From assembly GCF_024385525.1 (NCBI RefSeq), contig NZ_JANFLU010000004.1:124001-188000 (forward strand): a stretch of 64,000 bases of DNA. The letters run 5' to 3'. The position numbers were made by a program, and so were the translations under genes. The notes beneath the pieces are model-generated. The model ran no database searches and had not been told where the DNA came from. It worked only from the letters and a program-made list of their open reading frames with translations. Each line of letters starts with the position of its first letter. The first letter of the stretch is position 1. Positions 53,806 to 57,078 of this stretch are shown in pieces. The DNA comes from Arthrobacter sp. zg-Y238 (GTDB taxonomy: Bacteria > Actinomycetota > Actinomycetes > Actinomycetales > Micrococcaceae).

Positions 53806-53982
53806 ACTGCGTTAAGGGTGCCGACAGGCCTGCACGGATCCGATAACACCACGTCTACCGTCGCCGCAGCGGCCGTTGTACGCTCGCTTCCACAGGGCGC
53901 ACCGCCTGGGGAGCGCATGGGGAGCGCACGGGGGAGCGAGCAGCGCGGACGTCAACGACGACGAGACGACAGCGAGGAAGAC

Positions 53983-55203
53983 ATGAGTTCCAACCGAGGA
54001 ATTGCTTACCTGGAACCGGGCGTAGTGGAAGTCCAGGACATCGACTACCCCAGCTTCGAACTGAAGGACGGGCCGGGCGTGAACCCGGCCAACATCGGGC
54101 GCAAACTTCCGCACGGAGCGATCCTGAAGGTGGTCACCACCAACATCTGCGGATCGGACCAGCACATGGTCCGCGGGCGGACGACGGCGCCGCCCAACCT
54201 GATCCTGGGTCATGAAATTACCGGGGAAGTGGTGGAAACCGGATCGGACGTGGAGTTCATCAAGGTTGGGGACCTGGTCTCCGTGCCGTTCAATATTTCC
54301 TGCGGCCGCTGCCGCAACTGCAAGGAACGCAAAACCGGGATATGCCTGAACGTGAACCCCGAACGTCCCGGCAGCGCTTACGGATACGTGGACATGGGCG
54401 GCTGGGTGGGCGGCCAGGCCGAATACGCCATGGTGCCCTACGCAGACTGGAACCTGCTGCGGTTCCCGGACAAGGACCAGGCCATGGAGAAGATCCTGGA
54501 TCTCACCATGCTTTCGGATATCTTCCCCACTGGCTATCACGGCGCTGTCACCTCCGGGGTGGGGGTCGGCTCCACCGTCTACATTGCCGGGGCAGGGCCC
54601 GTCGGCCTGGCGGCAGCAGTCTCGGCACAATTGCTGGGTGCCGCCGTTGTGATCGTCGGCGACCTGAACGAGGAGCGGCTGGCCCAGGCACGCAGCTTCG
54701 GCTGCGAAACCGTGGATGTATCGCTGGGTGCTCCGCAGGACCAGATCCAAATGATCCTTGGGGTGCCGGAAGTGGACTGCGCAGTCGACGCCGTCGGATT
54801 CGAGGCCCGCGGCCACGGTGCCGGGTCAAGCAGCGAGGCACCGGCGACTGTGCTGAACTCGCTGATGGACGTCACGGCTGCCGGTGGGGCACTGGGCATC
54901 CCAGGACTGTACGTCACCGGCGATCCGGGCGGCGTGGACGAGGCTGCACAGCAGGGTTCGCTGAGCCTGAATCTGGGTACCGGCTGGGCCAAGTCGCTGT
55001 CCTTCACCACCGGGCAGTGTCCGGTGATGAAGTACAACCGGGAGCTCATGATGGCGATCCTGCATGACAAGGTGCAGATCGCCAAGGCGGTCAGCGCCAC
55101 TCCGATCAGCCTGGACCAGGCACCGGAGGCCTATCGCGAGTTCGATTCGGGCGTGGCGAAGAAGTACGTTATTGACCCCAACGGAATGCTGGGCTCACAC
55201 TGA
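53983..55203 (+). CDS. fdhA: glutathione-independent formaldehyde dehydrogenase
   Basis: This 406-residue zinc-dependent, NAD-linked medium-chain dehydrogenase is of the Pseudomonas FdhA type. Catalytic zinc ligands are in NICGSDQHMVRGRT and LGHEITGEVVETG, the structural-zinc cysteines in ISCGRCRNCKERKTGIC, and the NAD motif is YIAGAGPVGLAAAVSAQLLG. The long insertion around QGSLSLNLGTGWAKSLSFTTGQ is typical of FdhA and absent from AdhP. The ATG at 53983 has GAGGAAG upstream. It oxidises formaldehyde to formate; no formate dehydrogenase is nearby. Confidence 0.92.
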   Translation: MSSNRGIAYLEPGVVEVQDIDYPSFELKDGPGVNPANIGRKLPHGAILKVVTTNICGSDQHMVRGRTTAPPNLILGHEITGEVVETGSDVEFIKVGDLVSVPFNISCGRCRNCKERKTGICLNVNPERPGSAYGYVDMGGWVGGQAEYAMVPYADWNLLRFPDKDQAMEKILDLTMLSDIFPTGYHGAVTSGVGVGSTVYIAGAGPVGLAAAVSAQLLGAAVVIVGDLNEERLAQARSFGCETVDVSLGAPQDQIQMILGVPEVDCAVDAVGFEARGHGAGSSSEAPATVLNSLMDVTAAGGALGIPGLYVTGDPGGVDEAAQQGSLSLNLGTGWAKSLSFTTGQCPVMKYNRELMMAILHDKVQIAKAVSATPISLDQAPEAYREFDSGVAKKYVIDPNGMLGSH

Positions 55204-55243
55204 CGCGTCCTCTCGCCGGGTAAGCGCGCCCGGAGAACAGGAG

Positions 55244-55280
55244 AGCCGGCGGGACCGAAACCAATTCGGCCCCGCCGGCT
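55244..55280. terminator. terminator hairpin after fdhA
   Basis: AGCCGGCGGG pairs with CCCGCCGGCT, extended by an inner CCGA/TCGG pair around a short loop. TTCGCTCTGT follows. It lies 41 bases after the fdhA stop. Confidence 0.75.
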
Positions 55281-55491
55281 TCGCTCTGTGCCCGTTCCCT
55301 TCTGATGCCCTGCGGCCCGGCGGTAAGCTCGACGTGTCCGGGCGCCGGCACCGGGTTTCCGGGCCCCGCCACTCGAATGCCAACGGCCCCTCTAAAGGGG
55401 TTGGAAGCGGGGACCACATGTACGGCAGCAGCGGGACGATAAGCACCGAAAGAACCGGTACCGGTACAGCCATATCCATGCGGGGCCCGGC

Positions 55492-57078
55492 ATGAACGGG
55501 GCGGACACGGCATGGGTGTTGGTCTGTGCGGGGCTCGTACTGTTTATGACACCGGGCCTGGCCCTCTTTTACGGCGGGATGGTGCCGGTACGCAACGTCC
55601 TGACCATGATGATGCAGAACATCATTCCGCTGGGGATCATTTCCCTGACCTGGGTGCTGGTGGGGTACACGCTGGCGTTCAGCAATAAGGGCAATTCCGT
55701 GGTCGGCGACTTCGACGCCTTTGCGCTGCTCGAGCTCGACACCCCGCAGTTCCATTCGGTGGCCGCGGGTGTGACCATACCGACGCTCGCCTTCGTGGCC
55801 TACCAGATGATGTTCGCCGTAATTACGCCTGCGCTGCTTACGGGAGCGACGGCGGGCCGGCTCCGGTTCGGCGGATGGGTGGTGTTCCTGGCCGCATTTT
55901 CCATTCTGGTGTACCCGCAGGTGGCGCGCTGGCTCTGGCATCCCAAAGGATGGCTGTTTCAACTTGGTGCCCAGGATTGGGCCGGCGGCATGGTGGTCCA
56001 TGCCTCTGCAGGCGCAGCAACGGTGGCGGTGCTGCTGGTGGTTGGCCGGCGGCGCGGCTGGCCCAACCTCCGGACCTCACCGAACAACCTTCCGCTGATG
56101 CTGGTTGGCGGCGGCATCCTTTGGTTCGGGTGGTTTGGCTTTAACGCGGGAGACGGGCTTCAGGCCAACGGCATTGCCGCGCAGGCCCTGATCAATACCC
56201 ACGTGGCAGGGGCGGCCGCGATGCTTACCTGGCTGCTCGTGGAACGGATAGGCAATGGGCGCTGCACCTTGGTGGGTGCCGTCTCCGGTGCCGTGGCCGG
56301 ACTGGCGACGATTACCCCCTGCGCCGGGTACGTGGGCACCGGCGCAGCCCTCCTGATCGGACTGATCGCCGGCTGCCTCTGTGCGGTGGCTGTCCGGCTC
56401 AAGCATGTGCTGCGCTACGACGACGCACTGGACGTGATCGCCGTCCATTTTGTGGGCGGCGTGCTGGGTTCCTTCCTGCTGGGTTTCTTCGCCGACAGCT
56501 CGGTAAACCCCGTCAGCGACGACGGCATCTTCTCCGGCGGCGGCGGAGTGCTCCTGTGGCACCAGACGGTGGCCATAGTCTCCGTGGTGCTCTTTTCCTT
56601 CGTGCTGAGCTGGATTGTGGCCGTCATTATTTCCCGCACCATTGGGCTGAAAGAGGCCGGGCCCGACCAGGAGGACCAGGACCGGGTCCAGCAGGGTGCC
56701 TCCGCATACTCCCTGAGCGGCATTAGCGCCCGCCCCGCAACGGCGGGCCGGGCGGCCAGCGAGGGCGCCGAAGATGCCCGGCGGGGGCGTTCCAGCCGGC
56801 TGGTCAGCGCCGTGGTCAATACGGATCGGGTTGACGGCCTGCGGGACGCGTTGCTGATGGCCGGCGCGCGATCCCTGGAGATGTCCGACGCCGCGGCCTA
56901 CACCGGAACCGTCCGTACCGAGGCTTTCCGCAGCGAAAAGCGGAGAATCGACTTTGAGGACCGGCTGCGGGTGCAGGCCGCGGTGGACGAAGAGCACGAG
57001 GAAGCAGTGGTGGCCGTCCTGAAGCGCTTCGGGGCGGAACCGGATTCGATTTACCGGCTCTCTGTCATTCCGTACTGA
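55492..57078 (+). CDS. amt: ammonium transporter fused to a degenerate PII-like domain
   Basis: This is a 528-residue protein. Residues 1-385 are an Amt channel with 11 helices: MTPGLALFYGGMVPVRNVL near the start, the pore twin histidines His170 (GGMVVHASAGAA) and His319 (DVIAVHFVGGVLGS), and FGWFGFNAGDGL. After a disordered linker (386-435), residues 436-528 resemble a PII signal protein (SRLVSAVVNTDRVDGLRDAL, then VQAAVDEEHEEAVVAVLKRF). The T-loop carries TEAFRS where PII has TELYRG, so the modifiable Tyr51 is Phe479, and the TGxIGDGKIF nucleotide loop is missing. No separate glnK follows. Confidence 0.9.
   Translation: MNGADTAWVLVCAGLVLFMTPGLALFYGGMVPVRNVLTMMMQNIIPLGIISLTWVLVGYTLAFSNKGNSVVGDFDAFALLELDTPQFHSVAAGVTIPTLAFVAYQMMFAVITPALLTGATAGRLRFGGWVVFLAAFSILVYPQVARWLWHPKGWLFQLGAQDWAGGMVVHASAGAATVAVLLVVGRRRGWPNLRTSPNNLPLMLVGGGILWFGWFGFNAGDGLQANGIAAQALINTHVAGAAAMLTWLLVERIGNGRCTLVGAVSGAVAGLATITPCAGYVGTGAALLIGLIAGCLCAVAVRLKHVLRYDDALDVIAVHFVGGVLGSFLLGFFADSSVNPVSDDGIFSGGGGVLLWHQTVAIVSVVLFSFVLSWIVAVIISRTIGLKEAGPDQEDQDRVQQGASAYSLSGISARPATAGRAASEGAEDARRGRSSRLVSAVVNTDRVDGLRDALLMAGARSLEMSDAAAYTGTVRTEAFRSEKRRIDFEDRLRVQAAVDEEHEEAVVAVLKRFGAEPDSIYRLSVIPY

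What the first reader, a model, noticed from the sequence alone, without database searches (positions are those of the whole stretch)
55492..57078. Ammonium channel with a built-in, unmodifiable PII-like regulator
Seen: the Amt part is complete (twin histidines at 170 and 319) and is followed, after a linker of about 50 residues, by a 93-residue segment that aligns with PII from strand 1 to the last helix. The T-loop is nearly the normal length, but the Tyr that is uridylylated or adenylylated in PII is Phe479, and the TGxIGDGKIF nucleotide-binding loop is absent. Known: Amt channels are normally blocked in trans by GlnK. Inference: here the blocking domain is fused and cannot be released by covalent modification, so gating may be constitutive, ligand-independent, or set by a new signal.
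Basis: partly seen in the sequence, partly recalled or inferred. Interest (0 to 1): 0.78.

Follow-up and report, generated by a model that had tools for sequence, protein, structure and literature searches.

The report
Ammonium channel with fused, degenerate PII
In all 29 sampled genomes of one Arthrobacter genus, an ammonium channel is permanently joined to a worn-down copy of the protein that normally plugs such channels; the plug tip is kept but the parts that sense the cell's nitrogen state are gone, so this channel is probably controlled in an unusual way.

Summary
ORF 55492-57078 is a real 528-aa Amt (twin His H170/H319) with a C-terminal domain (436-528) homologous to PII: weak by Pfam (13.8 bits, cut-off 25), clear by profile (hhalign 96.9%, P 1.8e-10) and predicted fold (50 listed Foldseek hits all PII). 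One reader detail is wrong: Phe479 aligns with PII Tyr46; the modified Tyr51 is Arg484, and Arg480 is GlnK's pore-plug residue Arg47. F479, R480 and R484 are invariant in 29/29 genus genomes amid variable neighbours. The B-loop is deleted and Gln39 replaced, so ATP/2-oxoglutarate sensing is probably gone. 'Unmodifiable' explains little: no GlnD was recognised in the family, and E. coli Y51A GlnK still leaves AmtB (PMC4274968). The fusion is in 29/29 genus genomes, 0 of 114 other-genus family genomes, 0 of 395 others in a phylum sample. Its Amt has a rewritten regulatory tail, Ser219 to Asp, and an overlapping upstream short ORF in 28 of 28 assessable loci. Most likely a tethered T-loop plug released from the Amt side or by an unknown signal; mechanism inferred, not shown.

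The parts
55403..55413 (+). conserved Shine-Dalgarno-like block GGAAGCGGGGA in front of the short upstream ORF
55418..55495 (+). 25-codon upstream ORF whose TGA stop overlaps the amt start codon (ATGA)
   Evidence: same arrangement in 28 of 28 genus loci with enough upstream sequence (25 by a strict pattern, 3 with a variant block); 1 of 29 not assessable
55492..57078 (+). Amt-PII fusion gene, 528 aa
55492..56643 (+). Amt channel part, residues 1-384
   Evidence: PF00909 334.7 bits over residues 7-406; pore residues aligned to E. coli AmtB
56152..56154 (+). Asp221 at the position of AmtB Ser219 (outer ammonium site; the role of Ser219 is recalled)
   Evidence: 29 of 29 genus genomes; Ser in 24 of 24 non-fused sibling Amts, Ser and Ala in the two other Amts of the own genome
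56644..56709 (+). rewritten Amt C-terminal regulatory region, residues 385-406
   Evidence: AmtB Gly393, His399, Glu401 kept in 24 of 24 siblings and lost in 7 of 7 fusions and 29 of 29 genomes
56710..56796 (+). variable linker, residues 407-435
   Evidence: 29-84 residues in 29 genomes; highest dN of the five tested regions
56797..57075 (+). degenerate PII (GlnK-type) domain, residues 436-528
56902..56949 (+). T-loop, residues 471-486
   Evidence: alignment to E. coli GlnK
56929..56931 (+). Arg480 = GlnK Arg47, the residue that plugs the Amt pore
   Evidence: 29 of 29 genomes with 3 synonymous codons
56941..56943 (+). Arg484 = position of the modified Tyr51 of PII
   Evidence: 29 of 29 genomes with 4 synonymous codons

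Best explanation
A lineage-specific Amt paralog carries its own PII-derived plug in cis. Shown by sequence: an Amt plus a PII-homologous domain, plug arginine and T-loop tip kept, nucleotide/2-oxoglutarate site and Tyr51 lost, Amt C-terminal region changed as well. Inferred: the three tethered domains form a PII-like trimer under the Amt trimer and place Arg480 in the pore exits, giving a channel that is shut or throttled by default. Release would then not be set by ATP/ADP/2-oxoglutarate or GlnD, but from the Amt side (ammonium occupancy of the pore, sensed at the Asp221-modified outer site and relayed by the rewritten C-terminal region), by expression level, or by an unknown ligand.
For: PII homology: 26 of 27 hits at E<=1 named PII or GlnK; 96.9%, P 1.8e-10; the 50 listed matches all PII. 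Arg480 = GlnK Arg47, the residue that blocks AmtB (PMC4274968 and PMC3198391, passages). F479, R480 and R484 are the only invariant positions of 16 in the T-loop in 29 genomes, with synonymous codon changes at 480 and 484. Domain found without an inner stop in 29 of 29 genus genomes and under purifying selection (median dN/dS 0.23; linker 0.39, Amt 0.08). Sensing site lost: B-loop deleted and Gln39 replaced in 20 of 20. Equivalents of F107, F215, D160, H168, H318, D313 and S263 kept in 7 of 7. The seven fusion Amts form one group, support 100/99.
Against: No transport, binding or trimer data. The T-loop is the least constrained part of the domain (dN/dS 0.39; 3 of 16 positions invariant against 33 of 78 elsewhere, p 0.095) and one residue short. 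R47A GlnK behaves like wild type in binding AmtB (PMC4274968), so a kept arginine alone proves little. The Amt tail that takes part in normal regulation (recalled) is degraded. The T-loop is modelled with low confidence. The 29 genomes are one genus, two of one species, so their counts are not independent.
Confidence: 0.45

Rival explanations
1. The PII-like domain is only a folded trimer cap or anchor. It no longer plugs the pore, and the channel is constitutively open or regulated only by expression.
For: T-loop is the most variable part of the domain and shortened by one residue; effector site deleted.
Against: F479, R480 and R484 are invariant in 29 of 29 genomes amid variable neighbours.
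Confidence: 0.27
2. The protein is an ammonium sensor rather than an uptake channel: Asp221 tightens ammonium binding at the outer site and the PII-like domain is the output, in the manner of the sensor Ks-Amt5 whose Amt part is fused to a histidine kinase.
For: Asp at the Ser219 position in 29 of 29 genomes against Ser in 24 of 24 sibling Amts; rewritten C-terminal region; long stem branch of the group; a precedent for an Amt turned sensor (PMC5764959, passages).
Against: All tested pore residues including both histidines are kept; no known output activity in the domain.
Confidence: 0.15
3. The domain works together with the organism's free GlnK, by mixed trimers or by competing for the pore, so that nitrogen status still reaches this channel in trans.
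For: One free GlnK above the PF00543 cut-off in 29 of 29 genus genomes; in the own genome it follows another amtB.
Against: Nothing tested; domain and free GlnK are too far apart for BLASTP to align.
Confidence: 0.1
4. Artefact: assembly error, read-through or chance resemblance to PII.
For: Pfam match below cut-off; most other Amt-PII ORFs listed from the database are singletons.
Against: Same fusion, no stop inside, in 29 of 29 genus genomes and 32 database proteins; profile and fold results.
Confidence: 0.02

Closest known systems
AmtB-GlnK pair (amtB and glnK side by side)
   Same: Same two families; T-loop tip with the plug arginine; the same genome holds such a pair on contig C7.
   Different: Here in one chain; the PII part has no B-loop, no Gln39, no Tyr51; the Amt C-terminal region is altered.
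Canonical Amt-PII (or PII-Amt) fused ORFs in databases
   Same: 87 of the 120 proteins listed (of 269 found) carry both PF00909 and PF00543 (my count of the table).
   Different: 118 of those 120 are singletons. Of the 75 with an Amt motif, 74 keep both the Tyr51 motif and the GDGK loop and one (P0134) fails the Tyr51 motif only; the query was a canonical GlnK, so this is partly built in. Several linkers look like out-of-frame joins of neighbouring genes (my reading). P0139, P0141 and P0142 have PII in front.
Ks-Amt5 (Amt fused to a histidine kinase)
   Same: Amt with a fused cytoplasmic module and a changed ammonium site (PMC5764959, passages).
   Different: The module is a kinase, not PII; its Amt part was reported to have lost transport, which is untested here.
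Proteins of the same fold (CutA, PstA, LarC2)
   Different: The sequence profile hits PII and no protein named CutA, PstA or LarC, and the domain keeps the TExFR...DF stretch of the PII T-loop.

Membership tests
Amt ammonium channel (PF00909) | family profile above cut-off | tested here: met
   334.7 bits, cut-off 23.2; TIGR00836 378.6, cut-off 343.3
Amt ammonium channel (PF00909) | twin histidines, Phe gate, conserved Asp | tested here: met
   H170, H319, F108, F217, D162 aligned to E. coli H168, H318, F107, F215, D160
Amt ammonium channel (PF00909) | conducts ammonium | not testable with these tools
   needs a transport assay
Classical PII (PF00543) | family profile above cut-off | tested here: not met
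   13.8 bits in the whole protein, 18.5 for the domain, cut-off 25
Classical PII (PF00543) | homology by profile comparison | tested here: met
   hhalign 96.9%, P 1.8e-10; hmmsearch best E 4.9e-6
Classical PII (PF00543) | beta-alpha-beta-beta-alpha-beta fold | tested here: met
   model mean pLDDT 74.7, 50 listed Foldseek matches all PII; other families of this fold score alike in VIA-align
Classical PII (PF00543) | B-loop nucleotide site (TGxxGDGK) | tested here: not met
   deleted in 20 of 20
Classical PII (PF00543) | Gln39 and Lys58 of the 2-oxoglutarate/Mg site | tested here: not met
   Gln39 is Ile, Val, Leu or Ser in 20 of 20; Lys58 is Arg in 18 of 20
Classical PII (PF00543) | Tyr51 modification site (not universal in PII function) | tested here: not met
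   Arg484 in 29 of 29 genomes
GlnK-type Amt inhibitor | Arg47 at the T-loop tip | tested here: met
   Arg480, 29 of 29
GlnK-type Amt inhibitor | trimer that inserts T-loops into Amt pores | not testable with these tools
   no multimer prediction offered

The most novel reading that the evidence does not exclude
A self-plugged ammonium channel in which the GlnK inhibitor became a fixed, effector-blind subunit, and control moved to the channel side: ammonium binding at an Asp-modified outer site lifts the tethered plug through a rewritten C-terminal region. It would be a transporter that gates itself by its own substrate.
Probability: 0.15. Interest if true: 0.85.

Novelty: new variant of a known kind. 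Interest (0 to 1): 0.55.

Why it matters
AmtB-GlnK is the textbook case of a channel plugged in trans by a metabolite sensor. A genus-wide fusion under purifying selection that keeps the plug tip but has lost the tested sensing features separates plugging from sensing, and offers a natural test of what the T-loop does once nucleotides and 2-oxoglutarate cannot move it. It also gives a naturally 1:1 tethered complex for structural work.

Tried and rejected
Chance resemblance or assembly artefact: rejected by 29 of 29 genus genomes with no inner stop. A known RNA element in front of the gene: the Rfam scan of 55150-55600 gave 7 matches, all below their gathering scores.

Relatives outside the genus: at E<=1e-15 none in 395 other genomes of a phylum sample (in the listed rows only the best 12 first-look candidates were scored). 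In 396 genomes of the order, 73 matched at E<=0.001: 4 of the genus at 167.7 bits or more, 69 others at 41.9 bits or less. Of those 69, 26 came with loci; 23 of the 26 read as free GlnK and 3 (L018, L029, L033) were missed by my pattern; 43 were not read. A second protein search with the divergent member P0029 listed 27 proteins, all Amts with matching tails, of which only P0154 and P0155 were new. The genome-contig scan gave one locus, Arthrobacter sp. zg-Y769.

Literature: eight searches; I saw listings with titles and starts of abstracts, and none announced an Amt-PII fusion. The six exact phrases were found in no paper. A search for 'fused' and PII/GlnK-domain terms in the 2023 review PMC10433425 found only reporter fusions. 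PMC12918730 (passages) describes no Amt-PII fusion in them. The library lacks most subscription papers; the 2009 review of Tremblay and Hallenbeck, cited in PMC5764959 for natural Amt fusions, was not seen, so an earlier mention is possible.

Full report
What is there. The frame 55492-57078 (+) encodes 528 residues. Residues 7-406 are an Amt (PF00909 334.7 bits).

What was kept and lost, by alignment with E. coli GlnK. Kept: Arg47 (Arg480); an aromatic at Tyr46 (Phe479); Glu44 (Glu477, in 21 of 29 genomes, else Asp or Gln); a basic residue at Lys58 (Arg491 in 27 of 29). Lost: Tyr51 (Arg484), Gln39 (Ile, Val, Leu or Ser), the B-loop, and most of the C-terminal loop (Arg522 falls on Arg101, but that stretch aligns poorly). 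In 29 genus genomes F479, R480 and R484 are the only invariant positions among 471-486, and codons at 480 and 484 vary synonymously. In E. coli, Arg47 blocks the AmtB pore, and Gln39, Lys58 and the bound nucleotide set the T-loop (PMC4274968 and PMC3198391, passages read).

Modification is a weak argument. PF08335 gives exactly two matches in each of 120 family genomes, as expected from GlnE alone (recalled: GlnE has two such domains); I read this from the per-genome counts, as not every second match was printed. TIGR01693 finds nothing above its cut-off in the own genome, though that cut-off is not decisive for actinobacteria. The free glnK lies between amtB and ffh, without glnD beside it. 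A review states that glnD is ubiquitous in actinobacteria (PMC4285133, passages). Tyr51Ala GlnK still binds and leaves AmtB in E. coli (PMC4274968).

The Amt part changed too. I compared 7 fusion Amts with 24 sibling Amts, the best-matching non-fused ones from other genera of the family. AmtB Ser219 is Asp in 7 of 7 and Ser in 24 of 24; Gly393, His399 and Glu401 of the tail are lost in 7 of 7 and kept in 24 of 24. The two other Amts of the own genome have Ser and Ala at 219 and keep the tail residues. In 29 genomes Asp221 is found in 29, and the three tail residues are replaced in 29. By a motif search, Asp stands in 34 of 35 fusion proteins (Ala in one), against Ser in 57 and Ala in 2 of 59 other Amt-PII ORFs.

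Distribution and selection. The fusion is in 29 of 29 genus genomes, each with one free GlnK. In 120 family genomes the full-length match without stops is in the 6 genus members; none of the 114 others has one, though a few align across stops further on. Phylum sample: 1 of 396 at E<=1e-15, the own genome. The seven fusion Amts form one side of a branch at 100/99, with a long stem. Median dN/dS over 21 pairs of 7 loci: Amt 0.08, tail 0.18, linker 0.39 (20 pairs), PII-like domain 0.23, T-loop 0.39. So the domain is kept by selection, more loosely than the channel.

An upstream short ORF. A Shine-Dalgarno-like block followed by ATG opens a 16-59 codon ORF whose TGA overlaps the amt start (ATGA or GTGA). 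With a strict pattern this holds in 25 of 25 loci that have the block; three others have it with a variant block, and one (L087) has only 36 bases upstream. The overlap itself follows from the invariant Asn2 codon; the point is the open frame. The peptide is similar only within subgroups, and the loci are related, not independent. Translational coupling is the plain reading. The gene lies next to an fdhA-like gene in the window and in six of six relatives' loci checked, but no amt was found within 1.5 kb of fdhA in nine loci of other genera.

How it works. Best reading: a tethered plug, three domains per Amt trimer, shut or throttled by default, blind to nucleotides and 2-oxoglutarate, with release from the Amt side or by an unknown signal. 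The parts are shown, the mechanism is inferred. The main rival, a fold kept only as a cap, is favoured by the loose T-loop. A sensor role is suggested by Asp221.

Novelty. Amt and PII in one ORF is not new to databases: 87 of the 120 proteins listed (269 found) carry both Pfam domains, but 118 of the 120 are singletons, and 74 of the 75 with an Amt motif keep the Tyr51 motif and B-loop, which the canonical query favours. No paper listed by my eight searches announces a fixed, genus-wide, effector-blind version. I file it as a new variant of a known kind.

Noticed in passing
55403-55495: Short upstream ORF with its own ribosome-site-like block, stop overlapping the amt start; 28 of 28 assessable genus loci. 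Peptide similar only within subgroups.
   Followed up: partly
own genome and 120 genomes of its family: No GlnD recognised (two PF08335 matches per genome) although the free GlnK of the own genome keeps Tyr51; its glnK is followed by ffh.
   Followed up: partly
56152-56154: Asp in place of the AmtB Ser219 equivalent in the fusion Amts.
   Followed up: partly
53974-55203: fdhA-like formaldehyde dehydrogenase gene is the upstream neighbour in six of six relatives' loci but has no amt within 1.5 kb in nine other-genus loci.
   Followed up: yes
proteins (P0034-P0153): Most listed database Amt-PII ORFs are singletons, several with linkers that look like frame-shifted joins of amtB and glnK.
   Followed up: partly
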